Shown in pieces: positions 39,236 through 55,991 of a stretch of 64,000 nt of DNA; the first letter of the stretch is position 1; each line of letters opens with the position of its first letter. The stretch is from the NCBI RefSeq assembly GCF_022655595.1, contig NZ_CP093379.1, positions 3,010,734-3,074,733 on the forward strand. Reading direction: 5' to 3'. The notes below the pieces were generated by a model. The model was not told where the DNA came from. It saw only the letters and a list, made by a program, of their open reading frames with translations, and ran no database searches. Origin of the DNA: Ignatzschineria rhizosphaerae. Lineage in GTDB: Bacteria > Pseudomonadota > Gammaproteobacteria > Cardiobacteriales > Wohlfahrtiimonadaceae. A program made the position numbers and the translations under genes.

Positions 39236-39326
39236 GGAAAAGTGGCCGAGTGGTTGAAGGCGCTCGCCTGGAAAGCGGGTATACGTTAGTAGCGTATCGA
39301 GGGTTCGAATCCCTCCTTTTCCGCCA
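39236..39326 (+). tRNA. tRNA-Ser (GGA), attachment site of the integrated element
   Basis: 91 nt with the long variable arm of class II tRNAs. Acceptor GGAAAAG / CTTTTCC, anticodon loop CTGGAAA (anticodon GGA), T-arm GGTTCGAATCC, encoded CCA. Its last 23 bases are repeated at 50217-50239, so the element recreates the tRNA end. Confidence 0.95.
39304..39326 (+). repeat. attL: direct repeat at the tRNA-Ser 3' end
   Basis: 23 bases starting TTCGAATCC and ending TTCCGCCA, identical to 50217-50239 except for one base (C versus T at position 9). It defines the left end of a 10.9-kb element. Confidence 0.92.
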
Positions 39327-39336
39327 GACACATAAG

Positions 39337-39362
39337 ACCCTAACATTTGTTAGGGTTTTTTA
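39337..39362 (+). terminator. Element-borne terminator for tRNA-Ser
   Basis: ACCCTAAC / GTTAGGGT and a T run, 11 bases after attL. It lies inside the element, which thus supplies a new terminator for the tRNA it entered; another, different terminator follows attR. Confidence 0.8.
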
Positions 39363-39470
39363 TTGCCTGAAATAAACAAAAATAAGGGGTATATCAGCGT
39401 TTTTGGAGATTTTGAGATTTGGATAAGATCTTATAGCATTTGTTGAAATGCGTTTACTTCACTGAAAATA

Positions 39471-39518
39471 GTTGGTAACTTTGTTGGTAAACCTGAAAAG
39501 GAATATATATTTACCAAC
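39471..39518. repeat. Integrase arm-type sites, left end
   Basis: GTTGGTAA at 39471-39478 and 39483-39490 (12 bases apart, same orientation) and inverted as TTACCAAC at 39511-39518, just before the integrase start. The same octamer occurs twice with the same 12-base spacing near attR. Confidence 0.65.
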
Positions 39519-39537
39519 AAAATAGCGGAAATAGGCA

Positions 39538-40707
39538 ATGAAACTTAACTTTTCCAAGATCAAGGCAATTAAACCACAAGAAAAACTTACTAAGCATTCG
39601 GATGGTGGTGGGCTAGCTCTTTGGGTTTACCCTACGGGGAAAATGCGCTGGGCATTGGCATATAGGGAAGATGGGAAGCAAAAGACGGCTTATTTAGGAG
39701 ATTATCCTGCTTATTCATTGGCTGAAGCTAGGTCATGGCGCGATGAGATTAAAAATAGACTAGCTAGATCCTTGCCAGCAATCGATTCAACACTTAAAGA
39801 TGAGGCTTATCTTTACAAGAATGTATTTGAGGAATGGTATGCGCGTTGGGCTGGAGAAAAAAAGAGTCAGAAATATTCGCAACAAGTAAAAAATGCCATT
39901 TATGCCAATGTAATGGATGATTTGGGGAAAATGGATGTTAGGGAAATAAGGCCTTTTACCATTGTTCAGGCGTTGCGGGGTATGGAAGAGCGGGGAGTGT
40001 TAGAGTATTTAAGGCGCGTTAAATCCTCGTTAAAGATGAGTTTTGATTATGCTGTTAGTTGTGGGTTAATAGACTTTAATCCAGTTGTAGCTGTGGGTAC
40101 CCAATCATTCAAGAAAGCTGAGAAAAAGCACTTTGATGCACTTAATCCTGAAGAGTTGCCGTTGCTCATTGAAAAATTAGAGAATAGGGAAATATCAGGA
40201 GTAACACGCTTAGCTATATATTGGCAGTTCCTCACAATGACGCGACCAATTGAGGCTGTCAGCGCTCGATGGGAGGATATTAACCTTGAAAAGAAGCATT
40301 GGGAGATCCCAGCGGAAGTAATGAAGAAAAGCCGGCCACATATTATCCCGTTAAATGACTTTCTTATTTCGCTGCTACCGGAAATTAAAAGCATGAATAC
40401 GCGTGATACTTATCTTTTTGAGGGGATGGATTACGGTACGCACTTAAACAGGGAAACGCCTAGAATTACGTTGAGAAGATCTGGTCTAAATAGTACCGCT
40501 CATGGATTGCGTGCTTTAGCTGCTACAATACTTGAGGAAGCGGGATATCCAGAGGCTGTTATTAAAGCTGGGCTTTCCCACGCCAAAGGCGGTGGGGATC
40601 AAACTACCCCAGCTTATTTAAGATCCACATTTTATGATGAGCGAGTTGGCATGATGGATTATCTAGGGGGAGTTGTAGAGCGTGCGCGTAAAGACTTCCT
40701 TGATTAA
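39538..40707 (+). CDS. int: Tyrosine integrase of the satellite (DUF4102/P4-type)
   Basis: 389 residues. N-terminal DUF4102 arm-binding domain (LTKHSDGGGLALWVYPTGKM), central core-binding domain and catalytic domain with Arg in TMTRPIEAVSARW, His-x-Leu-Arg in AHGLRALAAT, His in GLSHAKGG and Tyr in TPAYLRSTFYDERV. It is oriented away from the tRNA, beside attL and next to repeated GTTGGTAA sites. It catalyses insertion into and excision from the tRNA-Ser 3' end. Same type as integrases of P4, PICIs and many tRNA-targeting islands. Confidence 0.93.
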   Translation: MKLNFSKIKAIKPQEKLTKHSDGGGLALWVYPTGKMRWALAYREDGKQKTAYLGDYPAYSLAEARSWRDEIKNRLARSLPAIDSTLKDEAYLYKNVFEEWYARWAGEKKSQKYSQQVKNAIYANVMDDLGKMDVREIRPFTIVQALRGMEERGVLEYLRRVKSSLKMSFDYAVSCGLIDFNPVVAVGTQSFKKAEKKHFDALNPEELPLLIEKLENREISGVTRLAIYWQFLTMTRPIEAVSARWEDINLEKKHWEIPAEVMKKSRPHIIPLNDFLISLLPEIKSMNTRDTYLFEGMDYGTHLNRETPRITLRRSGLNSTAHGLRALAATILEEAGYPEAVIKAGLSHAKGGGDQTTPAYLRSTFYDERVGMMDYLGGVVERARKDFLD

Positions 40708-40852
40708 GTCTCCCAACTTTTCGGGAGATCGGTCCAAACTTGGACTGATTGAATTAGATCAACGCATTTTTGCGTAGGTTAGTCGGAATTCCGACTGACC
40801 ATTGGTGGGCGTGATATCCCGGCAACGTCTATCGTTATTCCGATAGACCTAT
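40708..40852. repeat. Cluster of five consecutive hairpins
   Basis: In the 157 bases between int and the convergent 201-residue gene: TCTCCC/GGGAGA (40709-40728), GTCCAA-AC-TTGGAC (40732-40745), ACGCA-TTTT-TGCGT (40762-40775), the perfect 16-bp palindrome AGTCGGAATTCCGACT (40781-40796, extended by GGT/ACC) and GTCTATCG/CGATAGAC (40827-40848). The sequences differ from each other and lack T tracts, so they are not a simple repeat array or a set of ordinary terminators. Confidence 0.8.
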
Positions 40853-40863
40853 TTTAGGTGTAT

Positions 40864-41469
40864 TTATTTTTCAATATTGAATAGATCAGCAATAAAATTA
40901 TTTAGTTCTTTTATTTGTCTATCATAATCTTCTTTAGTTACTGGTGTTTTTAATGTGTCCATAAATTCTTTGAGCTTTTGGTCAGTTTGTTGTTTTTCTA
41001 AATCCTGGTCATAAATCATTGCATCATGATGATCGGATAGTTCCCTTGATGCTTCTGTATCGCCATTAATTGCGAGATTAAGTAGCTCCCAATCATTTTC
41101 AATTTGCTTATAGTTTATATTTTCATCCGTCCATGCCCCAGGGCATTTTTTTAAATATAAGTATGGGTACTTAATTATTAATTCCCACAGTTTTTGTTCT
41201 TCAAAAGATAATAAATCTTTTCTTGTAATAGCTAGAATTACAAATCTTCTAGACTCTTCAATTTGCCATAGCTTATCGGCATAATCTGCTACAGATTGTT
41301 GCGAATCCTCAAATAAATCTACACTTTTGAGGCTTTCTTCTAAAGCCCATTCTATATAGTTAGTTACACTTCTACGCTGAATCCTAGCCGCTACTTCAAC
41401 CAAGTATTTTACTTTTGGTTCTAGCCTTACTGATGTGGCCTCTTTTCTGGGTTGGGGGGTTCTAGCCAT
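40864..41469 (-). CDS. Ribbon-helix-helix-type protein, possible satellite regulator
   Basis: 201 residues. The N-terminus (KEATSVRLEPKVKYLVEVAARIQRRSVTNYIEWALEESL) looks like an Arc/MetJ-type ribbon-helix-helix DNA-binding domain: a basic strand with SVRL followed by two helices. The remaining ~150 residues are helical and charged and not recognised. It is the only leftward gene of the element, divergent from alpA, the position of a master repressor in satellites. Function is inferred from position and fold only. Confidence 0.6.
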   Translation of the reverse strand: MARTPQPRKEATSVRLEPKVKYLVEVAARIQRRSVTNYIEWALEESLKSVDLFEDSQQSVADYADKLWQIEESRRFVILAITRKDLLSFEEQKLWELIIKYPYLYLKKCPGAWTDENINYKQIENDWELLNLAINGDTEASRELSDHHDAMIYDQDLEKQQTDQKLKEFMDTLKTPVTKEDYDRQIKELNNFIADLFNIEK

Positions 41470-41689
41470 AATTTTTATCCTGCTTGCGAGATAATGAATT
41501 GTTTAGTTTTCGCTTGTATAGCGATTGATATGAAGAGATTATTACTTTTTTGGTTTGAATAGTAAAGTTTTAAACCTTTATGTGTCTTTTAAGCTTTATT
41601 TGGTTTTTTAATATTTGATTGCTTTTTAAATACAGCTTAGCTATTATCAATTTTAGGACTTGGTGTTGTTTATATTTAAGGGAAATGAG

Positions 41690-41914
41690 ATGGAAGAAAA
41701 TAAAATTAAAGATTTGGGCTTAAGTGATGAGCATATCCTTTGGGATCGTGACACTGTCAGTAGTGTGATTGGCTTAAAAGCTAACGGGGTCTATTCAGCA
41801 ATAAAGAATGATGGCTTTCCCGCCCCACTGAGAATTGGGGGGAGAAAAAGTTTATGGAAAAAGTCAGATGTATTAGCGTGGATTGATTCACGTCCACAAG
41901 AGTTAAGTTATTAA
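41690..41914 (+). CDS. alpA: AlpA-family transcriptional regulator
   Basis: 74 residues from the ATG at 41690 (AAGGGA upstream). Winged-helix pattern of AlpA/MerR-like excisionases: HILWDRDTVSSVIGLKANGVYSAIKNDGFPAPLRIGGRKSLWKKSDVLAWI. AlpA is the signature activator of Gram-negative PICIs, where it drives the island's lytic-type operon and often int. Starts the rightward operon. Confidence 0.85.
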   Translation: MEENKIKDLGLSDEHILWDRDTVSSVIGLKANGVYSAIKNDGFPAPLRIGGRKSLWKKSDVLAWIDSRPQELSY

Positions 41915-41928
41915 TAGGAGTATTAGAA

Positions 41929-42111
41929 GTGAGTAAAAAACCATTAACAAGAGCGCAGATTTTAGATCAGTTTGCGCGGAGACATGACAAGATTCTTGCA
42001 GCTTTGGATACGCTTGATTTTAAGGGTATTTTTGAAATGAAAAGCGATATTAGATATGAGTTAAGTCTAATGGAGAAGTTGATAGAGGATCTAGCCAATG
42101 AAGAAAAATAA
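41929..42111 (+). CDS. Small helical protein of the satellite
   Basis: 60 residues, GTG start after GGAGTATTAGAA. Charged, fully helical (LTRAQILDQFARRHDKILAAL). No family recognised. It overlaps the next gene by 14 bases, so the two are probably translated together. Confidence 0.55.
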   Translation: MSKKPLTRAQILDQFARRHDKILAALDTLDFKGIFEMKSDIRYELSLMEKLIEDLANEEK

Positions 42112-42307
42112 CTTAAGTGCTGAATTGCTTTTGATTGTGTTTATCCAAAGTTTTAATGATTTGATTCATCAATACACCAATATTCTCATTAATCATTTAG
42201 CTAAAGGAGAAACGGCTCAAGGGTTAGAATTGGCATATCAAATTGATGATGATCTAAAACAGTTGTTTGAAGATATTGAAGCAATACAAACGAAACTTAA
42301 TTTTTAA
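42098..42307 (+). CDS. Small helical protein of the satellite
   Basis: 69 residues, helical, no family recognised (FIQSFNDLIHQYTNILINHL). Same operon as its neighbours; no signal peptide or membrane segment. Confidence 0.5.
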   Translation: MKKNNLSAELLLIVFIQSFNDLIHQYTNILINHLAKGETAQGLELAYQIDDDLKQLFEDIEAIQTKLNF

Positions 42308-42321
42308 TAAAGGCAATAAAA

Positions 42322-42606
42322 ATGGTTGTAGAAGATGAACAATTAGCAATAGCAAAGGGCTCAATATGGGATGCTAGATCTCTTAATGGAGAATATTTGC
42401 GCGTTGCATTAAACCAAGTGGAGTTGCTTACTATGAGTATGCATAAAGGTAATACTAGTTTCATTGAGGATGGGTTAGAAATGCTACGGAATTATTTACA
42501 GGATAATCTTACTCATGTTGAGATCTTAGCGGGTGACGCTAAAAAGGATTATTTAGACTTTAGAGAGGCAATAAAAAAGCGCGAATCCGACAAGAAACAC
42601 GCTTAA
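42322..42606 (+). CDS. Small helical protein of the satellite
   Basis: 94 residues starting after AAAGGCAATAAAA. Helical, acidic in the middle and basic at the C-terminus. No family recognised. It ends the run of three small proteins, followed by a GC-rich hairpin AGGAGG/CCTCCT with T residues (42627-42647), which may end or attenuate this transcript. Confidence 0.5.
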   Translation: MVVEDEQLAIAKGSIWDARSLNGEYLRVALNQVELLTMSMHKGNTSFIEDGLEMLRNYLQDNLTHVEILAGDAKKDYLDFREAIKKRESDKKHA

Positions 42607-42740
42607 TACTATCCAAATAAGATTAGAGGAGGTTGCACCCTCCTTTAATCCTTTAAATGATAAGGATAATCATCATGTTATATCAGAAAGATCTATCTTT
42701 CAAGCGCTATCACGCGCCTAAAGTCCTGTAAGGGGGCATT

Positions 42741-43199
42741 ATGGTGAGTTATACCGCAAGGAGCAGAGAAAGAGAGAAAGACAAGAAAAAGAGGCTTAAG
42801 TTTTCTGAGCGTATTAATAACAGTGGTTTTTTCCCATCTCGTAGGGATGTTATTTTCAGCGAAGAATATCAACGTTTGGGCGCTTCTGCCGTTAAGCTAT
42901 ATCATGATGTAAGCGCTCATTGGGATGGTAAGAATAATGGGGATCTATGCGTTACTTATAGCGTTATGAATAAGCTTCATGGGTGGGCATCAAATGGAAC
43001 GCTTAGAAGAGCACTAAAAGAGTTATTAGATGCGCGTTTTTTAGTATTAACTAGGGAGGGCGATAGAAATAGGCCAGCTTTATATGCTTTAACGACTGTT
43101 CCAATTGATAAATGCTTAGATGAGAATGGTTTTAGTAAGATCCATATCGAACCGACATCACGAGCCCCAGATTGGTGGCGAGATCCTCCGAAACATTAG
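42741..43199 (+). CDS. Winged-helix protein, putative replication initiator of the satellite
   Basis: 152 residues. A basic N-terminus (RSREREKDKKKRLKF) is followed by a winged-helix-like domain: SAVKLYHDVSAHWDGKNNGDLCVTYSVMNKLHGWASNGTLRRALKELLDARFLVLT, which resembles the DNA-binding part of Rep/phage O-like initiators. No primase or helicase is encoded anywhere in the element, so replication would rely on host or helper enzymes. The iteron cluster starts 56 bases after its stop, the usual initiator-origin pairing. Function is inferred. Confidence 0.6.
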   Translation: MVSYTARSREREKDKKKRLKFSERINNSGFFPSRRDVIFSEEYQRLGASAVKLYHDVSAHWDGKNNGDLCVTYSVMNKLHGWASNGTLRRALKELLDARFLVLTREGDRNRPALYALTTVPIDKCLDENGFSKIHIEPTSRAPDWWRDPPKH

Positions 43200-43255
43200 A
43201 GCGCCAATTTAGGCGCTTTTTTTACGTCCTAATATTTATTTATATTAACTCTTGG

Positions 43256-43394
43256 GGTCTCAAAATAGGACTACGTTATCCGCTCACTGGGCTCAAAATA
43301 GGACTACAACACACCAATAAATGGCTTTCGTGGTCTCAAAATGAGCCCAGTTAAGTGTTATTTACTCGTTTGCGTGGTCTCAAAACAGGACACC
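43256..43394 (+). repeat. Four iterons
   Basis: Degenerate direct repeats with the core CTCAAAA: GGTCTCAAAATAGGACTAC at 43256, GGCTCAAAATAGGACTAC at 43290, GGTCTCAAAATGAGCCCAG at 43332 and GGTCTCAAAACAGGACACC at 43376. Spacing 34, 42 and 44 bases. They look like initiator binding sites. Confidence 0.75.
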
Positions 43395-43590
43395 TTTATA
43401 TATAAAGCCATATACCTGCATATTCATATGCGCCAATGTAAGAAAGAAACACAGAAAGAGATCGGGCAGAATAATTGTCCGCCCACCAATTGTGATTAAG
43501 CTTACGAAACTTTCGTATGGTGATGGAGCGAGCGAAACTTCCGCCCGCTTAAAGTTGAGCAGTGAGATTTTACTTATCCTAGATGACAAG

Positions 43591-43719
43591 CCAAAATTGG
43601 ACAGTCCCCAAATTTGGGGTTAGTGAGTCGATGTGCAAAAATGCGTTACGGGAAATCCCGCATCGGGTGAGCGCGTAAAAGTTTTACTCGCTACCGATAA
43701 CGACTACCCAATTTTGGGG
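43591..43719. repeat. Three related palindromic boxes
   Basis: CCAAAATTGG (43591-43600), the perfect CCCCAAATTTGGGG (43606-43619) and CCCAATTTTGGGG (43707-43719). They share CC(C)-A/T-GG(G) symmetry and look like operator sites for one dimeric protein. Confidence 0.55.
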
Positions 43720-43890
43720 AGCCACTTTATTTAATTGATGATGGATAAACATTGATTAATTGTTAGGCAATAGTAAGTCTTTAAAGTCCTTGTTTATTTG
43801 TTACTGTGCTTTAGCAAATAGCCCTATTTACCTGTGTTTTTAACATGCTAATAATGAAATTCTACATTATTGTAATTTAAGGGTTAGTTT

Positions 43891-45099
43891 ATGAAAGTTC
43901 ATGAGATTAGAGAGAAGAAAGCTAAAGTCGTTTACGACATGCGCCAATTGGTTACTAAGGCAGAAGAAGAAAAACGAGAGCTTACCAGTGATGAGGTTGA
44001 GCAATTTACCAAAATGAAAGGCGAGATTGAGAGCTTGGAAGCCAAAGAAGATCGCGCGTTATTTTTGGATCAGCAAGAGAGAAGTCAGCCCGCAGACAAA
44101 TCATTTCAAACACTTGAGAAGAAAGTAACGGTATTGGATGCCTTACAAGCTCAATTAGATGGCGGTGTTAGTGGGGCTTTGAGAGAGTTTAACCAAGAAA
44201 CAGAAATGCGAACCGGTAAAAAGGCGCAGGGGATCTATGTTCCTCTATCTGCTTTTGAAAAGCGGGATGCTCAAACGACTCAAACAGCTGCCGGTATTGT
44301 GCCAAGTGACTTTTACGCGAGCGAATATATCGGGCCATTAAGAAATAGCCTATTAATGCGAACATTGGGCATTAGAACGATGACAGGCTTGCGCGGTGAT
44401 GTAGTTATTCCAAAGTATAAAACAGGAATGACAGCCGGTTGGGTCTCAGAGAATGAAGCATTAACTAAAAGTGGTGGTAGTTTCCAAAATGTTGAGATGA
44501 AGCCTAAACACGTTGGGGCATTGACCGAGTTAAGCCGCCAATTAATCCAACAATCAAGCCCTGATATTAATAGCTTGGTAACAGATGATATTTCTTTTGT
44601 GATGGCCGATGCTTTAGATCAAGCGATTTTATCGGGTGATGGAGTGAAAGAGCCTTTAGGGATTTTAAAAACGACCGGCATTCAAAAAGGATCATTAACA
44701 GATCCTACATGGGAGTCTATTCTCAAGTTAAGTGAGCTTTTAGACGTTAGAAATGTAGAAAATGCAAAATATATCACTAATCCAACAGTGATGCGTGTAT
44801 TACGATCTATCGAAAAATCACAAGGTACTGCTCAATATCTTGCTACCAGTAACACTATTGGAGATGTTGGAGCATCAATTACGAATCAAATGGCAGGAAA
44901 AGGGTTGCTACTGGGTGATTTTAGCCAATATGTATTGGGTATTTGGTCGGAAGTGGATTTATTAGTGAATCCTTATGCTGAATCCGCTTATAACAAGGGG
45001 AATGTGCTTGTTAGAGCATTAATGACAGCGGGAACGGCTTGCCGAAATGCTGAGGCATTTGTTCATGTGGATGATCTTCCAACGGGTGAGGCAGGTTAA
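43891..45099 (+). CDS. HK97-family major capsid protein
   Basis: 402 residues. An N-terminal coiled-coil delta domain (residues 1-75, EEEKRELTSDEVEQFTKMKGEIESLEAKED) that serves as internal scaffold is followed by the HK97 fold (GIVPSDFYASEYIGPLRNSLLM, ALDQAILSGDGVKEPLGIL). The delta domain is expected to be removed by the protease encoded next. It forms the satellite's own procapsid. Length is normal; intact. Confidence 0.92.
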   Translation: MKVHEIREKKAKVVYDMRQLVTKAEEEKRELTSDEVEQFTKMKGEIESLEAKEDRALFLDQQERSQPADKSFQTLEKKVTVLDALQAQLDGGVSGALREFNQETEMRTGKKAQGIYVPLSAFEKRDAQTTQTAAGIVPSDFYASEYIGPLRNSLLMRTLGIRTMTGLRGDVVIPKYKTGMTAGWVSENEALTKSGGSFQNVEMKPKHVGALTELSRQLIQQSSPDINSLVTDDISFVMADALDQAILSGDGVKEPLGILKTTGIQKGSLTDPTWESILKLSELLDVRNVENAKYITNPTVMRVLRSIEKSQGTAQYLATSNTIGDVGASITNQMAGKGLLLGDFSQYVLGIWSEVDLLVNPYAESAYNKGNVLVRALMTAGTACRNAEAFVHVDDLPTGEAG

Positions 45100-45101
45100 T
45101 C

Positions 45102-45605
45102 ATGGAATTAAGAGCGGCTGAGGGATTAAAAGTAAAAGATCAGCGCGTAACTGGATATGCTGCCGTATTTGATTCGGTGGCAGATCTTGGGGCTTTTAAG
45201 GAAGTTATTAGAAAAGGCGCGTTTTCAAATGCCTTAAAAAGTGGTGTAAATATCAGGGCATTAGGCTTTCATGCTGATAATGCTTTGTTAGGAACGACTA
45301 AGGCGGGAACCTTAACCCTGAGAGAAGATGAAAAAGGCTTATTTTTCGATCTTTTATTGCCTGATACGACACATGGGCGAGATATTGCGGAATTGGTTGC
45401 GCGTGGGGATATTTCTGGCTGCTCTTTTGGCTTTTTTCCAGTGGATGAGATTTGGAATGGGGAGTTACGGGAATTATTGGATCTTGAGTTAGTCGAGATT
45501 ACTTTAACCCCTAACCCAGCTTATACGGATACGAGTGTAGCTTTAAGAAGTAAAATAAACCGCCGGAAGAGCGTTCAGCGGTTATGGTTGGATACGGTGC
45601 TATGA
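45102..45605 (+). CDS. HK97-family prohead protease
   Basis: 167 residues, herpesvirus-type assemblin fold. Conserved VTGYAAVFDSVADLGAF...IRKGAF start, His in GFHADN and Ser in DISGCSFGF form the expected His-Ser catalytic pair. It cleaves the capsid delta domain during maturation. ATG two bases after the capsid stop; its own stop overlaps the portal start (ATGA). Confidence 0.92.
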   Translation: MELRAAEGLKVKDQRVTGYAAVFDSVADLGAFKEVIRKGAFSNALKSGVNIRALGFHADNALLGTTKAGTLTLREDEKGLFFDLLLPDTTHGRDIAELVARGDISGCSFGFFPVDEIWNGELRELLDLELVEITLTPNPAYTDTSVALRSKINRRKSVQRLWLDTVL

Positions 45606-46792
45606 TTAAACGACTAAAAAGCCTATTTAAGGCTGAAACTAGATCCGATGGGGATAATTACTGGGAACATTGGCAAATGTTGCGCGGTGGCGGGATAAAT
45701 CCTGAAATCGCTGAATCTGTTAGTTCAGTTTATGCTTGTGTGAGCGTTATAAGCGAAACTATTGGAAGTTTGCCACTTCATCTATATAAAAATGATGATA
45801 AGCGCAGCAAAGCCACCAATAATAGCTTGTATGAAGTGCTTCATAGTATTTCTAATGAGTACCAGACAGCGGTTGAGTTCAGGGAATGGATGACAGCTTG
45901 CTATTTATTGCGGGGAAATGCTTATGCTTTGGTTGAGCGAGGGCGTGATGGGCAGGTTATAAGCCTTAATCCACTTCATCCTGATTCGGTAAGTATTGTT
46001 AAGGTTGGAGATTCTTATCAGTATCAAACGGTTAAAAATGGCAAGCCTATCCGACTGTTACCGCATGAAATATTCCATATTAAGCATAGAGCGGGAAATA
46101 ATCCTTTATTAGGAGTCAGCCCTATTCAGGCTTCGAGTGGTGCTATTGATTTGGCATTAGCTGAGCAACAGCATGGAAATGCTACTTTTACTAATGGGGC
46201 TAAGCTTCAAGGAATCTTAAACTTTCCGGGAGCGTTAAAGCCTGATCAACTAACACGCCTTAGAGAGGGGTGGAGTAATCAGCATAGTGGCGCTAAAAAC
46301 AGTGGTAAAACTCCTATTCTTGAGGAGGGAATTACTTATCAGCCTATTAGCATGACTTTACAGGATAGCGAGTGGATCGCTTCAAGGCAGTTCAGCGTTG
46401 AGGAAGTGGCTCGTATTTTTAGGGTGCCGCCTACCATGATCGGGGATCTAAGGCATGGTAACTATTCCAACAGTGTAGAGTTAGCTAGGCAGTTTGTAAC
46501 CATTACATTACGCCGTCATTTAGTCGCATGGGAGCAGGCGATTAATAAACAACTCTTAACATCAGCGGGTAGAAAGGCTTACTTTTCTGAGCATAGTGTG
46601 GAGGGTCTATTAAGGGGTGATTCCAATAATAGAGCAGAGTTCTATAAGTCAGGCATAGAAGCAGGGTGGTTATTACCTAGTGAAGCACGGCAGTTGGAAA
46701 ACCTGCCAACCGTTGAAGCTGGGTCATTAGATGAGCGCTACGAAAAAGTTGTAGCGTCAAAAGATGAGGAAAAGATAGATGAAGAAGCATAA
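45602..46792 (+). CDS. HK97-family portal protein
   Basis: 396 residues from the ATG at 45602, which overlaps the protease stop. Family segments: SSVYACVSVISETIGSLPLHLY, HIKHRAGNNPLLGVSPI, FSVEEVARIFRVPPTMIGDL. Forms the dodecameric DNA entry ring of the head and binds terminase and connector. The order capsid-protease-portal is reversed relative to phage HK97 (portal-protease-capsid). Confidence 0.92.
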   Translation: MIKRLKSLFKAETRSDGDNYWEHWQMLRGGGINPEIAESVSSVYACVSVISETIGSLPLHLYKNDDKRSKATNNSLYEVLHSISNEYQTAVEFREWMTACYLLRGNAYALVERGRDGQVISLNPLHPDSVSIVKVGDSYQYQTVKNGKPIRLLPHEIFHIKHRAGNNPLLGVSPIQASSGAIDLALAEQQHGNATFTNGAKLQGILNFPGALKPDQLTRLREGWSNQHSGAKNSGKTPILEEGITYQPISMTLQDSEWIASRQFSVEEVARIFRVPPTMIGDLRHGNYSNSVELARQFVTITLRRHLVAWEQAINKQLLTSAGRKAYFSEHSVEGLLRGDSNNRAEFYKSGIEAGWLLPSEARQLENLPTVEAGSLDERYEKVVASKDEEKIDEEA

Positions 46793-47153
46793 GCCTAATG
46801 TGATTGCGGGTACTATCAGACAACCTAAAAGCGGGAGTAAAACAGTAAAAGAGAAGCAGGAAGCCAATGGGCGAGCCTTATCTCTTAACTCGGTCGCATG
46901 GAAGCGCTTAAGAGCCTATCAGTTAAGCTTATTTCCGTTGTGTGAGCATTGTTCTCGTATTGGGTTGACTAATCCGGCCACTGATGTGGATCACATGGAC
47001 AATAACCCCTCTAATAACAGCATGGAGAACCTACAAAGCCTTTGTAAGCCATGCCACAGCCGAAAAACAAACCAAGATATGGGGAATAGGGTGGCTTTTG
47101 GTTGTGATGAGTATGGCAATCCACTAGATCCAACTCATGAATGGAACGATTAA
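46779..47153 (+). CDS. HNH endonuclease of the packaging module
   Basis: 124 residues. HNH motif DVDHMDNNPSNNSMENLQSLC with zinc-binding Cys pairs (LCEHCSR, CKPCHSRKT). In cos-packaging phages of the HK97 type such a protein lies beside terminase and is needed for cos cleavage. Overlaps the portal stop by 14 bases. A candidate cos region follows. Confidence 0.9.
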   Translation: MKKHKPNVIAGTIRQPKSGSKTVKEKQEANGRALSLNSVAWKRLRAYQLSLFPLCEHCSRIGLTNPATDVDHMDNNPSNNSMENLQSLCKPCHSRKTNQDMGNRVAFGCDEYGNPLDPTHEWND

Positions 47154-47304
47154 CAGCTCATCCACCAATGGTGGTTGGGTAAAAAAAATCGCAAAAAAGC
47201 TTTTGAAAAAGACCGCCCCCTCCCCTACACACACGTCTCCGCAGTTCAGGAGTTTTAGGAAAAATTAGGACAGCACAATTTTGTGCAGTCAGAAAGGAGG
47301 ATTT
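47154..47304. other. Candidate cos / packaging recognition region
   Basis: 150 bases between HNH and terS. They hold CCACCA-A-TGGTGG (47162-47174), a C-rich block (47211-47241, CCGCCCCCTCCCC) unusual for this AT-rich element, and GCACAA-TT-TTGTGC (47273-47286) next to the terS ribosome binding site. Location between HNH and TerS is where cos lies in HK97-like phages. Confidence 0.5.
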
Positions 47305-47700
47305 ATGGCGAATCCAAGAACGCCAACACAGCTAAGAATATTGGCAGGTAATCCATCTAAGAGACCATTGCCGGAAGGTGAGCCGGATTACCCAGAGGCA
47401 ACGGTAGAGCCACCATATTGGTTAGGGCATGAAGCCCGAAAGGTTTGGGAAAAATTATCCGGCGCTTTGGAAGTTAATGGAATGCTGAATGATGCTAACT
47501 ATGACATTTTGGCTACTTATTGCGATTTGGTTGGAGATTATATTGATAAACGAAACGCGGGAGAGCCACCGCATTTAGGAATGGCTCAGCAGATTAGATT
47601 ATTGGCTAGGGAATTTGGATTTACTCCGAGCAGTCAGGCAGGAGTATCCGCACCAAATAACAAAAAAGATGACAATAAAAAATCAAGATTCTTTAAATAA
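47305..47700 (+). CDS. terS: Terminase small subunit (P27 family)
   Basis: 131 residues from the ATG at 47305, which has a perfect AAAGGAGG four bases upstream; an in-frame start at 47281 has none. Family start MANPRTPTQLRILAGNPSKRPLPEGEP, then a helical DNA-binding core. It recognises the packaging site. A satellite-specific TerS is what directs packaging of satellite over helper DNA. Overlaps terL by 32 bases. Confidence 0.9.
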   Translation: MANPRTPTQLRILAGNPSKRPLPEGEPDYPEATVEPPYWLGHEARKVWEKLSGALEVNGMLNDANYDILATYCDLVGDYIDKRNAGEPPHLGMAQQIRLLAREFGFTPSSQAGVSAPNNKKDDNKKSRFFK

Positions 47701-49237
47701 AGATTTTTATTTTGATAATGAAACAGCTGAAAATGCGGTGGCATTCTTTGAGGAGTGTCTAACTCATACCACAGGAGAGTGGGCAGGAAAGCCATTTATT
47801 CTAGAAGAGTGGCAGGCGGATATAGTATCTAATATCTTTGGTTGGAAGCGAGTTAAGGATGACACTAGGAAATATAGAACCGTCTTTATTGCTTTGCCTA
47901 GAAAGAATGGAAAGACAACATTCGCAGCAGGATTAGCCCTCTATGCTTCTTTTTGTGATGATGAGTTGGGAGGTCAGGCGATTAATGCTGCCTCAGATAG
48001 AGAGCAAGCCCGGCTATGCTTTGATGTGGCAAAGGGGATGATTAGCAATGAACCAGAGTTAGAAAGCCGTTGTAAGGTTTATAAAAACTCTATTGTGATC
48101 CCTAATACTGGAAGCAGTTATAAGGTTGTGAGTTCAGAGGCTTTTTCTAAGCATGGATTAAATCTTAGCTATTTTGGTGCCGATGAATTACACGCTTGGC
48201 CAGATCCTGAATTATGGGATGTAATGACTACTTCTATGGGGGCGCGCCGTCAGCCTTTGACTGTGGTAACGACTACGGCAGGCTATAACCGGCAAAGCAT
48301 TTGTTATGAGCAATGGGATTATGCTCGAAAGGTCAGGGATGGGGTCATTAAAGATGATACTTACCTACCGGTATTATTTGAGGCGGAAGATGGTGACGAT
48401 TGGGAAGATCCTGCAGTTTGGGCAAGGGTTAATCCTAATTATGGGAAATCAATTAAGGAAGAGTTCCTGCAGGGCGAATATAAGAAAGCCAAAGAAATGC
48501 CGCGCCTTGAGAATACCTTTAAAAATCTTTATCTAAATATATGGACAGAACAGGAAACGAGATGGTTATCCCTTGATGTTTGGAATGATAATGGCGGTGA
48601 TCTTCCTGATTTAACTGAAATGGCTTGTTATGGTGCGTTAGACTTGTCTACGACTACGGATATATCTGCATTTGTAATGGTATTTAGGCAAGGACAAAAG
48701 GTTTATGTTAAACCCATGTTTTTTGTGCCGGCAGATAATGTTGATAAGAGATCTAAGCGGGATCGTGTTCCTTATGATTTATGGATTAAGCAGGGTTATA
48801 TCACCGCAACACCAGGCAACGTAATCGATTACGAAATCATACGCCGATATATCAATGATATGGGCGAGCAGCATGAGATTAGAGATATAGCCGTAGATAG
48901 GTGGAATGCGACACAAATAGCGACACAGTTACAGGGTGATGGCTTTGATACGTTTGCTTTTGGTCAGGGGTTCGCCAGTATGAGCGGTCCATCTAAAGAG
49001 CTTGAAAAGTTGCTATTAGGTCGTGAGATCTGTCATGGAGATAACCCAGTATTGCGTTGGATGGCTTCTAATGTGGCAATAGAAATGGATGCTGCCGGAA
49101 ATATTAAGCCGAGTAAGAAGAAGTCTACTGAAAGAATTGACGGTATTGTTGCTTTGATTATGGCTATTGGCCGTCTTATTTCAAATGATGATGAAGCGGG
49201 AAGGATGCGCGGCAGTGGTGAAATTTTATTTATATAA
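47669..49237 (+). CDS. terL: Terminase large subunit
   Basis: 522 residues from the ATG at 47669 (an in-frame start at 47615 lies deeper within terS). ATPase: Walker A-like LPRKNGKTTF and Walker B GADELHAW. C-terminal RNase H-type nuclease: Asp in YGALDLSTTTDIS, then Asp in IAVDRWNATQIA. Drives DNA translocation into the head and cuts concatemers. Complete and intact. Confidence 0.93.
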   Translation: MTIKNQDSLNKDFYFDNETAENAVAFFEECLTHTTGEWAGKPFILEEWQADIVSNIFGWKRVKDDTRKYRTVFIALPRKNGKTTFAAGLALYASFCDDELGGQAINAASDREQARLCFDVAKGMISNEPELESRCKVYKNSIVIPNTGSSYKVVSSEAFSKHGLNLSYFGADELHAWPDPELWDVMTTSMGARRQPLTVVTTTAGYNRQSICYEQWDYARKVRDGVIKDDTYLPVLFEAEDGDDWEDPAVWARVNPNYGKSIKEEFLQGEYKKAKEMPRLENTFKNLYLNIWTEQETRWLSLDVWNDNGGDLPDLTEMACYGALDLSTTTDISAFVMVFRQGQKVYVKPMFFVPADNVDKRSKRDRVPYDLWIKQGYITATPGNVIDYEIIRRYINDMGEQHEIRDIAVDRWNATQIATQLQGDGFDTFAFGQGFASMSGPSKELEKLLLGREICHGDNPVLRWMASNVAIEMDAAGNIKPSKKKSTERIDGIVALIMAIGRLISNDDEAGRMRGSGEILFI

Positions 49238-49246
49238 AGGGATGGT

Positions 49247-49570
49247 ATGGATTTTGGGAGATTAAAGCATAGAGTGACTCTTCAAAAAAGTGAGGTTACT
49301 AATGGTCCTTATGGTCGTGAAGAAAAATGGATAGATGTGGGAAAGTTATGGGCTGAAATTGGAAGTGTTTCGGGAAAAGAGCTTATTGCTTCAGGGGCTG
49401 AGTTGTCGAGTGTTAGCTATAAAATCATTATCCGTTATAGGAAAGATATAACAGCAAAACACCGCCTTAAATATGATGACAAGATCTATAATATTGAGGC
49501 GGTACTACCAAATAATAATAGAACAATGCTTACATTATTATGTGAGGAGGGATTAGAGCATGATTATTGA
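49247..49570 (+). CDS. Phage head closure / head-tail adaptor protein
   Basis: 107 residues of the SPP1 gp16 / HK97 gp7-like head closure family: begins MDFGRLKHRVTLQK, with VGKLWAEIGSVSGKE and KYDDKIYNIEAV. Closes the filled head and presents the tail docking surface. AAAGGGATGGT before the ATG. Confidence 0.85.
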   Translation: MDFGRLKHRVTLQKSEVTNGPYGREEKWIDVGKLWAEIGSVSGKELIASGAELSSVSYKIIIRYRKDITAKHRLKYDDKIYNIEAVLPNNNRTMLTLLCEEGLEHDY

Positions 49571-49838
49571 TTTAGATAAGGCTAAAGAGTTTTTACGAGT
49601 AGATCATGATGATGAGGATTCTTTGATTCAAGATATGATCGATAGTGCTGCAGCTTATACTCTCGAATATTTAAACTGGGAAGAAGAAAGGGAAGAATAC
49701 CCGGCGCCTGTTATTAGTGCTACATTATTAATGCTTGGGGATCTTTATGAAAATAGGACAGCACAAGCGCCTGTTCAGTTATTTAATAATAAAAGCTACA
49801 ATAGATTATTGAGCCCTTATAGGATGATGGTAATTTAA
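49560..49838 (+). CDS. Head-tail connector protein (gp6-like)
   Basis: 92 residues: IDLDKAKEFLRVDHDDEDSLIQDMIDSAAAYTLEYLN matches the HK97 gp6 connector family. Binds under the portal. Overlaps the head closure gene by 11 bases. It is the last recognisable structural gene: where phage genomes go on to tail genes, this element ends. Confidence 0.88.
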   Translation: MIIDLDKAKEFLRVDHDDEDSLIQDMIDSAAAYTLEYLNWEEEREEYPAPVISATLLMLGDLYENRTAQAPVQLFNNKSYNRLLSPYRMMVI

Positions 49839-49855
49839 ATTTAAAGGAAAAATTT

Positions 49856-50134
49856 ATGTCTTTAATAGATGATAATAATGTAAAAATAGGTGTTGATGAG
49901 ATTAAAAAATATGTGAAAAATAATAATATGCAAATTGATGAGCAATTTTTCACTCCTCACGCTTCGCAAATTAAAGCTAATATGGTTAGGAGTGGTGCGG
50001 TTGGCGAAGGGGATGCGTTTGTAAGGGCTCTAGAGTATCTAGTTTCTCAAGAATTTTTTGGTGCTGTCGCCTTACATAGCGGTGGGGGGAAGTTATTTTT
50101 AACGGAGAAAGGGTTTAAAGAGGTTAATGGTTAG
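49856..50134 (+). CDS. Terminal gene of the satellite, unknown function
   Basis: 92 residues, strong AAAGGA upstream, no family recognised. It has acidic N-terminal helices and a more hydrophobic C-terminus (ALHSGGGKLFLTEKGFKEVNG). Placed after the connector and before attR, the slot where satellites often carry accessory genes (anti-phage, tail-redirecting or immunity). Role unknown. Confidence 0.55.
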   Translation: MSLIDDNNVKIGVDEIKKYVKNNNMQIDEQFFTPHASQIKANMVRSGAVGEGDAFVRALEYLVSQEFFGAVALHSGGGKLFLTEKGFKEVNG

Positions 50135-50144
50135 ATGTTCTTTT

Positions 50145-50164
50145 GTTGGTAATGTTGTTGGTAA
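50145..50164. repeat. Integrase arm-type sites, right end
   Basis: GTTGGTAA at 50145-50152 and 50157-50164, the same 12-base spacing as at 39471/39483, 53 bases left of attR. Confidence 0.65.
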
Positions 50165-50216
50165 ATATATTTTTTATATTTAAAGATCTATTATTAACAA
50201 GCAAATATGGCGTTTG

Positions 50217-50239
50217 TTCGAATCTCTCCTTTTCCGCCA
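50217..50239 (+). repeat. attR: direct repeat of the tRNA-Ser 3' end
   Basis: 22 of 23 bases identical to 39304-39326, not part of a tRNA here. It marks the element's right end. Confidence 0.92.
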
Positions 50240-50936
50240 AACAGGGAAACCCTTAGCTTTTCGCTAGGGGTTTTTTCTTGTCAAAAATAAGCCTAAAAGC
50301 ACTATATATCGTCTTTTTCATAAAATGAGGATTTTCTCTCCTTTTTTTTTAGGTTTTTTTAATTCGTTCACTCATCAATAAAATATTGATAAATTTGTTG
50401 GTAAGGAACGTTTTTAGAAAGTCTAGGTGCCTGTTTGAGATGAGATAATCTTTTTAAAAAGTGATATCGCTGTAAAATAGAGAGTTTAATGGTGTGATTT
50501 ATTATCTGTTTATTTATCTGATGAAGAGTTTGTAAAGGTAGTCTTAATGGGGAATTCTGTCGATGGATAAAGAAGATTATTAGAGATAATAGGGGGGGAG
50601 GATTATTTTTTGGGGTATTTTTATCAAAGAAATTGTTAAAGTTTGTAATTTTTTCATTATTTTAAATTCCCTATAGTAAAAATAAGATCTAAAAAAGTAT
50701 AAAAAACAATATTTTAGTATTTTTTTGTGTTTAAATGGCGTTTAATGTTTAAAAAAGTTTTTTAAATATAAATAAATTTACATTTCAGGTGTTAAAATTC
50801 TTTCAACGGTAAAGATTGAAGATTAAAAACAAATGTTTACCTAACTTAACATTGATGAGTAGAGTGATTACATTTCTTACAGTTATTCGTTGGTGGTAAT
50901 GGAATTAAAATTTTATCAAAAGGACTCGATTAAATT
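50240..50936. other. Region between attR and the fimbrial operon, with an element relic
   Basis: Starts with a terminator (50249-50278), then at 50370-50404 a stretch similar to the sequence before int (ending in GTTGGTAA at 50397-50404, 158 bases from attR, as the left copy is 157 bases from attL). The rest is strongly AT-rich, has a G7 run (50592-50598), and should contain the promoter of the pilin gene. Confidence 0.6.
50249..50278 (+). terminator. Terminator after attR
   Basis: ACCCTTAGC / GCTAGGGGT stem, loop TTTTC, then six T residues. Probably the tRNA-Ser terminator of the site before integration. Confidence 0.8.
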
Positions 50937-51458
50937 ATGAAAAAAATGACATTAACCTTAGCACTTATCGCAGCAACAACTTCAGCAGTATTTGCACAAG
51001 CGATGAATACTATTAACTTTAAAGGTACTGTGACAGATTCAGCATGTACTTTAAATTCTGTAGAAGATGTTGATCTCGGCTCTATTGCAGTTAATACTCT
51101 TAAAAACGGTAAAACAGGTGGTTGGGGATCAAGTGAAATTATCTTTACTGATTGTAATCTTGATGCAGAAGAGGGCGCGGCGAAAGATAAAATTGTTCTT
51201 TCGGTTCTCCCTGGCACTGCAGCGGATTCTGGTAATAAGTATTGGTTTAATGAAGGCGACGCTTCAAACGTTGGTGTTGAGATCCAAATTAGTAATACAG
51301 CAATTACTCCTGATGGTAAATCTGAGATTCCACAGTTAGCGATTTCGGGTAATACTGTGAAAACAACAGTTCGTGGACGTACTGTAAAATCAGGTTCTGG
51401 CGATCCTTCAGTGGGCTCAGTTTCTGCAAGAATTAACTTTGTGGCAGACTATAGATAA
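50937..51458 (+). CDS. Type 1 fimbrial major subunit
   Basis: 173 residues with signal peptide (cleavage after AVFAQA) and the pilin pattern INFKGTVTDSACTLNSVEDVDLGS (first strand with Cys), second Cys in IIFTDCNL, and C-terminal beta-zipper strand SVSARINFVADYR. Assembled by the usher and chaperone encoded next. A terminator-like hairpin separates it from the usher, as usual when the major subunit is made in excess. Confidence 0.92.
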   Translation: MKKMTLTLALIAATTSAVFAQAMNTINFKGTVTDSACTLNSVEDVDLGSIAVNTLKNGKTGGWGSSEIIFTDCNLDAEEGAAKDKIVLSVLPGTAADSGNKYWFNEGDASNVGVEIQISNTAITPDGKSEIPQLAISGNTVKTTVRGRTVKSGSGDPSVGSVSARINFVADYR

Positions 51459-51495
51459 ATGATAGAATTATCCTAAGTAAATAGGATACCGCATA

Positions 51496-51535
51496 AAAAA
51501 GAGCTATTCCTTGGAAACGAGGGAATAGCTTTTTC
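51496..51535 (+). terminator. Partial terminator between pilin and usher
   Basis: AAAGAGCTATTCC / GGAATAGCTTTTT stem with an 11-nt loop and T run. Read-through is needed for the usher, so it probably tunes expression downward. Confidence 0.75.
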
Positions 51536-51552
51536 TGATTTGAGAAAATCGA

Positions 51553-54099
51553 ATGATACGAAGATGTAAGAAAATAAATGTGAATATTTGGTCGCAAGAT
51601 TGTCGATTAATGATGTCTTTTATTTTCTTATTTTTTTCACTTAAAGTGGCCTATAGTTTTGAGTTTGATCCTAGAGCTTTAGCTGGCATTGATCCTAGTG
51701 AGTTAGATAACGTTGATTTAAGCGCCTTTTCTGGAGAGAGTGGGCAGTTAACAGGGGAATACTCCTTAGAAGTTACCGTGAATGATCAGCGAGTTATCAG
51801 TGGCCAAAAAGCCTCCTTTTATTTAGATCATGAGGAGAATAGAGTCTGTTTTACATCAGATTTTATTGAACAATTACCAATTCGGGATCGTTATTATAGG
51901 ACTCTAAAAAGAGATGTTATTCATGAGATGAATGGTAAGGCTTGTTTAGGGTTGGAAAATCTAGATGAGGCTATTGCGGTTGACTATTATCGAGAAAACC
52001 AGCATTTAAATATTCAAATGCCACAAAAATTCTTGCATGACATCGATGAATATTGGGTTGCACCAAGAAATAGAGATGACGGTATTTCTGGGCTAGTTTT
52101 AGATTATAGTTTGTTATGGAATTATAATAATTATAAGTATGGTGGGCAGCGAGAAAGTTCAACGACGATTAGTAGCTATGGCTCAGTAGGCGCTAATATC
52201 GGGCGATTTAGAATACGAAGTAATTATCAATACTCAAGATTTAATAACGGCTATTCACAATTTGACTGGACGCAAACCTATATATTTACGGATATCGCAA
52301 GGTTAAACGCTAAGCTTTATGCCGGAGAGCTCTATTCTCGAAATAATCTCTTTGATTCTGTCAGGTTTAAAGGAATCAGTCTTTATACGGATGAAGAGAT
52401 GATGCCGGCGTATCTACGAGGCTATGCACCACAAATTATTGGGACAGCTTCTACGAATGCTATTGTCAATATTAAGCAAAATGGGGCAATTATTAAAACT
52501 GTGCAAGTGCCGCCAGGACCATTTGTGATTTCTGATTTGCCATCATATGTATCGGGGACCGTCGAAGTAGAGGTGGATGAGGATGGCGTAATTCGTAGTT
52601 ATCAGGTAGATGTGGCCAGTGTTCCTTTTTTAACACGAAAAGGGAGCATGAGATACTCGATCAATATTGGTCGTCTTGAACCTCTTTATCGAGTAGATAG
52701 AGTGGATACTGGGCTTATTTCTGCAGATGCCTCTTATGGCTTAACGAGTAATATTTCATTAATTGGTGGTGTTCAACATACGACAAATGGCGAGTATCGC
52801 GCATTCAATCTCGGTCTTGGTATTAATATGATGCAGTTTGGTGCATTGTCTATTGATATTACGCAATCTAGTAGCCGGATGAATCGATCTGATGAGTGGC
52901 AAAAGGGATACCGTTATAGTTTTAACTATGCAAAACTCTTTACAACTTCCACATCATTAAATATCACGGGATTTAAAAATTCCAATATTCATTTTAGAAC
53001 TTTACAAAATTATATTGATATGAAATCTAATAGCGCTCATTTGAGTTTAGAAAAAGAGCGTATTTCAATTAGCCTTATGCAATATATAAAACCGTGGGAT
53101 TTGAGTATCTCTGCCTCGATGGTCCGTGGGCGTTATTGGAATCGTGAGAAGCTGACGAACTATAATATCTCTTTTAATAAGACCATTCGCCAAGGGTTAT
53201 TATCGGGTAGTAGTATTAACTTATCATTTGCTAAAAATCGAACCGAATATGGTATGAAAGAAGAGAGCGTTTCTCTTTACATGACGATTCCTTTAGATGG
53301 TTCTAAAGATGAAAGAATTCAATACAATAGCCGTTATAGCCGTGGTCAAAAAATGTGGGACAATCAGTTGACCTATCGTAGTAATGCGGCTTTTGGCGGT
53401 AATTATTCTATTGCGACAAGAATGTTGCATCATCATGATTATAGCCGAAATACAGAATATAGCCTCAATGGTAGTTATGATCGAAATACTCGTTATGGGC
53501 GTTTAATGACTTCTGCAAGTTATGCGGAAGATAAGCATTCAGTCACAGCAGGATTTGATGGTTCAATTACGGTTACCCAACATGGTATTGCTACTCATAG
53601 TAAGGTTATGGATGATGATGCGCGTCTAATTATTGATGCAGGTGCCTCTGGTGTAACGATTAAAGGTACGCATAATAAAACCAATATTTTTGGGCTTGCC
53701 GGCTTAGGAATTCCTAGTTATCAGCAGATGACTTACCGAGTTGATAATGATGATATCCCGGAAAATGTTGAACTTCTAGATAGTGTGATAAAAACAGCGG
53801 CGTCAGATGGGGCTATTGTCTACCACTCTTTGGGAGCGGTAAAGGGTGAAAAGGCAGTTACAAGCATTCAGCTTGTTGATGGCGCTTATCCGCCTTTTGG
53901 CGCAGTTGTCTATCGACATGATGGCGTTAAAAATGAGGTGGCGATTGTTGCTGAACAGGGATTAACTTACTTGTCAGGAATTGATCGGCATGCGAAGTTT
54001 ACGGTGGAGTGGGGAGCTCAACTTTGCCAGTTAAAAATTACATCTTTAGAGCCTTCGGCTTTACAGAATTTAACTTGTTATTTTAATGAGGAATTATGA
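51553..54099 (+). CDS. Fimbrial outer-membrane usher
   Basis: 848 residues, normal size for FimD/PapC. N-terminal domain starts at FDPRALAGIDPSELDNVDLSAF; plug region includes SGTVEVEVDEDGVIRSYQV; C-terminal domain ends ITSLEPSALQNLTCYF with the paired Cys. A 24-strand barrel is expected. Start at 51553 has a weak ribosome site; Met at 51610 is an alternative giving a clean signal peptide MMSFIFLFFSLKVAYS. Overlaps the chaperone gene by four bases. Confidence 0.93.
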   Translation: MIRRCKKINVNIWSQDCRLMMSFIFLFFSLKVAYSFEFDPRALAGIDPSELDNVDLSAFSGESGQLTGEYSLEVTVNDQRVISGQKASFYLDHEENRVCFTSDFIEQLPIRDRYYRTLKRDVIHEMNGKACLGLENLDEAIAVDYYRENQHLNIQMPQKFLHDIDEYWVAPRNRDDGISGLVLDYSLLWNYNNYKYGGQRESSTTISSYGSVGANIGRFRIRSNYQYSRFNNGYSQFDWTQTYIFTDIARLNAKLYAGELYSRNNLFDSVRFKGISLYTDEEMMPAYLRGYAPQIIGTASTNAIVNIKQNGAIIKTVQVPPGPFVISDLPSYVSGTVEVEVDEDGVIRSYQVDVASVPFLTRKGSMRYSINIGRLEPLYRVDRVDTGLISADASYGLTSNISLIGGVQHTTNGEYRAFNLGLGINMMQFGALSIDITQSSSRMNRSDEWQKGYRYSFNYAKLFTTSTSLNITGFKNSNIHFRTLQNYIDMKSNSAHLSLEKERISISLMQYIKPWDLSISASMVRGRYWNREKLTNYNISFNKTIRQGLLSGSSINLSFAKNRTEYGMKEESVSLYMTIPLDGSKDERIQYNSRYSRGQKMWDNQLTYRSNAAFGGNYSIATRMLHHHDYSRNTEYSLNGSYDRNTRYGRLMTSASYAEDKHSVTAGFDGSITVTQHGIATHSKVMDDDARLIIDAGASGVTIKGTHNKTNIFGLAGLGIPSYQQMTYRVDNDDIPENVELLDSVIKTAASDGAIVYHSLGAVKGEKAVTSIQLVDGAYPPFGAVVYRHDGVKNEVAIVAEQGLTYLSGIDRHAKFTVEWGAQLCQLKITSLEPSALQNLTCYFNEEL

Positions 54100-54791: not shown

Positions 54792-54796
54792 AAAAA

Positions 54797-55810: not shown

Positions 55811-55991
55811 CGCTCACAATGGGGGTTAAAATCCTCAAATGTTTAATTGAGCTTTAGGGGGGGGATTTCCCTGTTTTTGTAAATATTTATAAATAATTTA
55901 AGATTAATAAGTGTAACATGGATGTTCAAGCATACTTCATATAGGAATCATTCATTAGAGTGATTTTCTATTTAAATAAGGAAATTTGATA

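What the first reader, a model, noticed from the sequence alone, without database searches (positions are those of the whole stretch)
39327..50239. Capsid-forming satellite island (cf-PICI-like) in tRNA-Ser: complete head and packaging set, no tails
Seen: 23-bp att repeats around a compact element with int, alpA, a putative initiator, capsid, protease, portal, HNH, TerS, TerL, head closure and connector, all intact, and no tail, lysis or large replication genes. Established: capsid-forming PICIs encode exactly this and use helper-phage tails. Inference: this is a member in a lineage where I know of none described, smaller than most (10.9 kb) and without a primase. A helper prophage should exist elsewhere in the genome or population.
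Basis: partly seen in the sequence, partly recalled or inferred. Interest (0 to 1): 0.93.

Follow-up and report, generated by a model that had tools for sequence, protein, structure and literature searches.

The report
Tail-less phage satellite builds own heads
A 10.9-kb island in a bacterial chromosome (likely an Ignatzschineria) carries a full set of virus-head and DNA-packaging genes but no recognisable tail genes, so it would likely spread by borrowing the tail of another phage; it belongs to a set of about 11-kb elements found in many bacterial genera, in which a predicted small replication starter often stands where the known islands of this kind have a primase.

Summary
Between two copies of the tRNA-Ser 3' end (23 of 24 bases) lies an intact 10.9-kb element with integrase, AlpA, capsid, protease, portal, HNH, TerS, TerL, head closure and connector, and no recognisable tail or lysis gene; a same-genus relative has the empty site. 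It likely works as a capsid-forming PICI does, but two tested features differ from that family: no Pri-Rep (a RepA_N-like protein with four iterons fills the slot) and a capsid outside the clade of the E. coli reference (AU p 0.00013). I call it a new variant. 'Smaller than most' fails within its lineage: 40 elements measure 9.8-11.9 kb, median 10.9. 'None described' is doubtful: related capsids sit in 49 loci of named Pseudomonadota. The genome holds a siphovirus prophage, a candidate helper; its neck proteins match in type, not in sequence. Some relatives are apparently circular contigs with plasmid replication genes. Not shown: excision, replication, particles, helper. The founding cf-PICI papers were not held, so whether this lineage is in print stays open.

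The parts
39236..39326 (+). tRNA-Ser(GGA), attachment gene; its 3' end is attL
39303..39326 (+). attL (24 bp)
39538..40707 (+). tyrosine integrase
   Evidence: PF13356, PF22022, PF00589
40864..41469 (-). divergent ribbon-helix-helix-like protein, possible repressor (inferred); found in 12 sources, the window included
   Evidence: TacA1 E 0.0049, under the cut-off
41690..41914 (+). AlpA-type activator (listed ORF starts at TTG 41660; ATG at 41690 is the likelier start)
   Evidence: PF05930 over the cut-off
41929..42111 (+). small ORF, no family
42098..42307 (+). small ORF, no convincing family
42322..42606 (+). small ORF, no family
42741..43199 (+). RepA_N-like winged-helix protein, predicted replication initiator
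43256..43394 (+). four iterons at 43256, 43289, 43332 (2 mismatches), 43376, spaced 33/43/44 bp, with AT-rich stretches on both sides: predicted origin
   Evidence: 5 matches in the window against 0.28 expected; the fifth lies at 42357
43891..45099 (+). HK97-fold major capsid protein
   Evidence: PF05065, TIGR01554, phrog_617
45102..45605 (+). prohead protease S78
45584..46792 (+). portal protein
46779..47153 (+). HNH endonuclease
   Evidence: 37% over 65 aa to ECs_1595 of E. coli Sp7
47281..47700 (+). terminase small subunit
   Evidence: PF05119, TIGR01558 just under its cut-off
47669..49237 (+). terminase large subunit
   Evidence: PF20441, PF03354
49247..49570 (+). head closure Hc1
   Evidence: phrog_25, TIGR01563
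49560..49838 (+). head-tail connector Ad1
   Evidence: phrog_40, TIGR01560
49856..50134 (+). last ORF, no family
50216..50239 (+). attR (23 of 24 identical to attL), followed by the original tRNA terminator

Best explanation
This is an intact 10.9-kb island in tRNA-Ser that encodes its own phage-type head and packaging machine and no recognisable tail, and it most likely moves as a phage satellite whose filled heads would be completed with the tail of a helper phage. Predicted cycle: a helper raises AlpA (inferred from PICIs); Int excises the island as a circle; the RepA_N-like protein binds the iterons and recruits host or helper replication proteins, since no primase or helicase is encoded; capsid and protease build a small head; HNH-TerS-TerL cut at a cos-like site and fill it; connector and head closure finish the neck; a helper tail docks and the helper lyses the cell. 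Shown: gene content, order, att pair, empty site, iterons, the fold match, the narrow size range of the kin, and kin contigs with terminal overlaps. Inferred: every step of the cycle.
For: Families. Att pair and empty site. All eight head and packaging genes have a counterpart in E. coli O157 Sakai Sp7, though TerS (E 0.012) and the capsid (N-terminal 73 aa only) are weak by BLAST. Both elements put capsid-protease-portal before HNH-TerS-TerL, while the six phage head modules fetched have terminase first. Size: 40 elements, 9,815-11,888 bp, median 10,900 (19 of them rest on repeats of 40 bp or more). In these 40 no unassigned ORF of 600 aa or more lies inside, apart from three before the capsid (L007 748, L025 624, L029 791). 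Initiator: RepA_N structures lead in three comparisons. Iterons: a 9-mer present three or more times in 30 of 48 distinct regions behind the initiator gene, mean 0.02 of 48 in 50 shuffles, 3 of 137 control regions behind other genes; 49 of 68 spacings fall at 21-23, 31-34 or 42-45 bp. Four of 74 whole kin contigs end in terminal overlaps, so are likely circles.
Confidence: 0.85

Rival explanations
1. It is a plain member of a cf-PICI clade already in print (one of the 'three radiations'), and nothing in it is new beyond the host.
For: Published sets are large: 900 cf-PICI capsids in PMC13230959 (passage). Three separate capsid radiations are reported (PMC11389934, passages). cfPICIs are said to be abundant in diverse taxa (PMC11773190, passage).
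Against: [quoted passage not shown] The host list, the size and the missing Pri-Rep do not fit. The founding papers were not held.
Confidence: 0.35
2. It is a remnant of a full prophage that lost its tail and lysis genes.
For: The head genes are ordinary HK97 type; in the portal tree five phage rows fall among the satellites.
Against: The head and packaging genes are open and the att pair is present. The same tail-less layout and size recur in many hosts. Gene order is the reverse of the six phage modules fetched. Among the 25 best-listed phage records of 237 the capsid identity is at most 33%; all 237 are under 60%.
Confidence: 0.04
3. The resident siphovirus prophage at about 2.66-2.70 Mb is the helper of this very island.
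For: It has Ad1, Hc1, Neck1, tail terminator, major tail, tape measure and J, the tail parts that the island lacks; its J is the only PF13550 match in the genome.
Against: Its own Hc1 and Ad1 are of other families and unlike the satellite's. Published cf-PICI EcCIEDL933 was not mobilised detectably by any of its strain's 17 prophages (PMC11389934, passage). Three prophages with P2-like features and one Mu-like are alternatives.
Confidence: 0.3
4. It is a domesticated head maker akin to a gene transfer agent that packages host DNA.
For: The capsid profile also matches the R. capsulatus GTA capsid (6tb9/6tba, E 2e-12); PMC12846349 groups a cf-PICI capsid with that GTA (passage).
Against: It has its own integrase, att pair, AlpA, predicted initiator and iterons, is absent from this site in the seven same-genus genomes compared, and its kin share a narrow length range.
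Confidence: 0.03

Closest known systems
Capsid-forming PICI of E. coli O157 (Sakai prophage Sp7, NC_002695 1594711-1610171; its identity with EcCIEDL933 is my inference)
   Same: Capsid, protease, portal, HNH, TerS, TerL, head closure and connector have counterparts (the HNH partner ECs_1595 is annotated 'holin'); capsid-protease-portal lie before HNH-TerS-TerL; no tail gene annotated in the part fetched, from 1597000 on
   Different: 15.5 kb, with primase and SSB; connector genes lie between portal and HNH instead of after TerL; capsid in another clade
Vibrio satellite plasmid cf-PISP TG54 (PMC13230959, passages)
   Same: Capsid-forming, tail-less; carries parA and repA
   Different: Extrachromosomal, no integrase. 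The paper found it only in Vibrio; plasmid-type kin of the present capsid family were found here
PLE of Vibrio cholerae (PMC7145576, passages)
   Same: RepA_N-family initiator acting on iterons, without primase or helicase of its own
   Different: Large serine recombinase; takes its virion from phage ICP1 (recalled)
EcCICFT073-type Gram-negative PICI (PMC6092414, passages)
   Same: int at the left end, AlpA, iteron origin
   Different: Particles made of phage proteins; Pri-Rep
HK97-type phages (NC_002167 and five others)
   Same: Same head, packaging and neck families
   Different: Terminase-first gene order and tail genes

Membership tests
cf-PICI | own full head and packaging gene set | tested here: met
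cf-PICI | no tail or lysis genes | tested here: met
   small ORFs without family remain
cf-PICI | integrase plus AlpA, att-flanked single insertion | tested here: met
cf-PICI | capsid-protease-portal placed before HNH-TerS-TerL, as in the E. coli reference | tested here: met
   opposite in six phages
cf-PICI | Pri-Rep replication protein (named among the signature genes in PMC10448857) | tested here: not met
   no ORF over 152 aa between AlpA and capsid; RepA_N-like protein instead
cf-PICI | capsid in the clade of the E. coli reference | tested here: not met
   (AU p 0.000133; long branches are a caveat)
cf-PICI | induced by a helper phage and released in particles with helper tails | not testable with these tools
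   needs induction, EM and transfer
RepA_N initiators | RepA_N N-terminal winged-helix domain | tested here: inconclusive
   best structural and profile matches are RepA_N, but E-values are weak and the window protein reaches no Pfam model
RepA_N initiators | iterons next to the gene | tested here: met

The most novel reading that the evidence does not exclude
A mobile 'head cassette': one capsid-and-packaging block of about 6 kb, captured from phages separately from the E. coli cf-PICIs, has been joined again and again to different replication units (RepA_N with helically phased iterons, Prim-Pol or AAA primase-helicases, Rep_3 or ParA plasmids), giving a size-locked class of about 11-kb tail-less viruses across Pseudomonadota, both integrated and as plasmids.
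Probability: 0.5. Interest if true: 0.75.

Novelty: new variant of a known kind. Interest (0 to 1): 0.6.

Why it matters
If right, satellites that make their own heads are not one primase-driven family but a body plan reached from more than one capsid source and run on several kinds of replicon, including plasmids. PLE's RepA_N was called surprising for Gram-negatives, and its authors guessed that other chromosomal RepA_N genes might sit in cryptic satellites (PMC7145576, passages); this lineage would be a direct case. The narrow 11-kb size range and the resident siphovirus make head size, packaging and tail borrowing testable in one strain.

Tried and rejected
Scans that led nowhere: TerL in genome contigs (0 of 74 stretches confirmed) and the capsid as a single sequence in viral contigs (0 of 3); alignment A1 then worked. 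Folding of the iteron region is not special (z -1.16). PADLOC gave no defence gene but one weak DUF4297 match, E 0.0012. The capsid model hits 2 of 369 class-wide genomes at E 1e-60 and 2 of 32 in the order at E 1e-40, the window's own genome included in both, so the lineage is patchy. The portal tree is no help: five phage rows fall among the satellites and Sp7 sits near the base on a long branch. Paper searches bearing on print. Of the papers listed I saw passages of PMC11389934, PMC10448857, PMC11773190, PMC13230959, PMC12846349, PMC13345588, PMC10803314, PMC6092414, PMC13362518 and PMC7145576; the others I saw as listings only. I make no claim that the lineage is unpublished.

Considered and dropped: 'smaller than most'; tails hidden in the flanks. 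For the flanks I scanned 74 of 88 listed ORFs, right-hand flanks only, against PHROGs: 72 families matched at 1e-5, 25 shown; none of the shown ones is a tape measure or major tail protein, but two members match 'lytic tail protein/endolysin' models and L007's 932-aa flank ORF matches tail-spike models (2e-27).

Rows dropped: alignment A2 held a junk row of one residue and was replaced by A3 (30 chosen sequences). Of 42 repeat-bearing rows, one search kept 40 (L020 with a 14-base repeat and L135 fell out). The capsid clade test left out L056 (Bacillota, long branch). Six of the 102 capsid loci with a TerL have it before the capsid: three are the likely circles with permuted starts, three are alphaproteobacterial relatives with another layout.
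Full report
What is there. The window is the last 64 kb of a 3.07-Mb single-contig genome. The host is likely Ignatzschineria: the same-genus genome G006 has a contig of 403,612 bases, the same length as the longest contig of a protein cluster named from Ignatzschineria ureiclastica; the name is an inference. At 39303-39326 and 50216-50239 lie two copies of the tRNA-Ser(GGA) 3' end, 23 of 24 bases equal. Between them are an integrase, a divergent small DNA-binding-like protein, AlpA, three small ORFs, a winged-helix protein, iterons, capsid, protease, portal, HNH, TerS, TerL, head closure, connector and one last small ORF, all open.

Integration. In the same-genus genome G008 the tRNA is followed at once by the terminator that in the window sits right of attR; the window flanks, joined at the att site, align through the junction (84.9% over 667 columns, of which 40 lie past the junction). 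Six other same-genus genomes match the left flank up to the tRNA end and then stop matching. So the island is a discrete insertion. Its left end brings another terminator-like sequence behind the tRNA (sequence printed).

The lineage. A capsid alignment found 50 loci in named genomes. 49 are in Pseudomonadota; the one Bacillota hit (L056) is very weak and has phage order. It also found 242 IMG/VR contigs, of which 80 were kept. In 123 of 129 loci capsid, protease and portal follow one another; TerL was found in 102, downstream in 96. Forty elements with att-like repeats, the window included, run from 9,815 to 11,888 bp, mean 10,949, median 10,900. Nineteen of the 40 rest on repeats of at least 40 bp; the shorter ones may include chance. 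The other loci examined gave no repeat, many because the contig ends too soon. The lineage is patchy: 2 of 32 genomes of the order and 2 of 369 of the class, own included; none of the eight other same-genus genomes has it.

Relation to the E. coli prototype. The fetched part of Sakai Sp7 (from 1597000 on) has primase, SSB, capsid, protease, portal, two neck proteins, an ORF annotated holin that matches our HNH protein, TerS and TerL. That Sp7 is the Sakai counterpart of EcCIEDL933 is my inference; it fits the PerC-like gene noted for EcCIEDL933 in PMC11773190 (passage), since Sp7 carries pchE. All eight morphogenesis genes of the window find a partner there: protease 45%, head closure 42%, HNH 37%, TerL 36%, portal 33%, connector 30%, TerS 35% over 37 residues (E 0.012), capsid 33% over its N-terminal 73 residues only. 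Both elements place capsid-protease-portal before HNH-TerS-TerL; the six phage modules fetched have the reverse. But the neck genes come after TerL here and before HNH there, and the capsids do not group: the window and 35 kin form one clade (98; 96.7), and holding Sp7 with them is rejected (AU p 0.000133; long branches are a caveat). The portal tree gives no such separation: five phage rows fall among the satellites. Within the lineage TerL comes in two types, one with HK97 (22 rows) and one near Firmicutes phages (12 rows, the window among them; support for that neighbourhood only 89, and the tool warns of long branches), so packaging genes seem to be exchanged.

Helper. At E 0.01 the genome holds no other PF05065 capsid and no other phrog_40 connector. 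It holds three prophages with P2-like features (label recalled): two were read by ORFs, the third is known from tape measure and portal hits only, and one was checked by family (terminase, head, tape measure). It also holds one Mu-like prophage with a transposase, and one siphovirus prophage at about 2.66-2.70 Mb with CI-like repressor, Ad1, Hc1, Neck1, tail terminator, major tail, tape measure and J. The last is the best resident candidate because its tail module begins where the island's genes stop. Against it, its Ad1 and Hc1 are of other families and show no similarity to the island's. Published work reports that a cf-PICI was not mobilised detectably by any of 17 prophages of its own strain (PMC11389934, passage), so co-residence proves little. 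The search for prophages was by a few families and not exhaustive.

Plasmid kin. Four of 74 whole IMG/VR contigs of the family (L077, L114, L123, L140; 9.9-10.9 kb) end in terminal overlaps of 77-141 bp, hence are likely closed circles; three of them have permuted gene starts; no integrase was recognised in them. Three carry Rep_3 initiators (PF01051 at 2.1e-35 or better), one a ParA-like ATPase and a resolvase. A named case is an Acinetobacter schindleri plasmid with RepM followed by the same head cassette in the same order. A 2026 paper described capsid-forming satellite plasmids in Vibrio and found none outside that genus (PMC13230959, passages).

Verdict. By mechanism a capsid-forming satellite (0.85). 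By membership I do not file it as a standard cf-PICI, because Pri-Rep and capsid-clade membership were tested and not met; it is a new variant of that kind. Whether the published catalogues already hold it could not be checked, since the founding papers are not in the library.

Noticed in passing
L077, L114, L123, L140; NZ_CP044475.1 41307-51228 (L194): Likely capsid-forming satellite plasmids outside Vibrio: apparently circular 10-kb contigs with Rep_3 or ParA genes and no recognised integrase, and the same cassette beside repM in an Acinetobacter schindleri plasmid.
   Followed up: partly
G000:C1 about 2660001-2700000 (L189, L190): Siphovirus prophage with Bet/RecT nearby, CI-like repressor, full neck and J-bearing tail; candidate helper.
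   Followed up: partly
G000:C1 about 530-550 kb, 2.20-2.23 Mb, 2.80-2.82 Mb; 2.367-2.400 Mb: Three prophages with P2-like features and one Mu-like prophage in one 3-Mb genome; the one at 2.80 Mb was seen only through two family hits.
   Followed up: partly
L050, L051, L052: Distant alphaproteobacterial relatives (33-34% capsid) with another layout: HNH-TerL first, then capsid-protease-portal, with the integrase behind the portal.
   Followed up: no
loci in the TerL tree: Two TerL types within one capsid lineage, one with HK97, one near Firmicutes phages: packaging genes seem to be swapped while the capsid is kept.
   Followed up: partly
window 50937-54099: A 173-aa ORF and an 848-aa fimbrial usher (PF00577) lie right of attR; the same-genus genome G008 has no match to window 50280-56018 in the stretch compared.
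   Followed up: no
L012 and L013 (Brachymonas chironomi, NZ_KB894774.1, both contig ends): Two elements of the family at the two ends of one contig, one with the small initiator and one with a Prim-Pol primase in the same slot.
   Followed up: no
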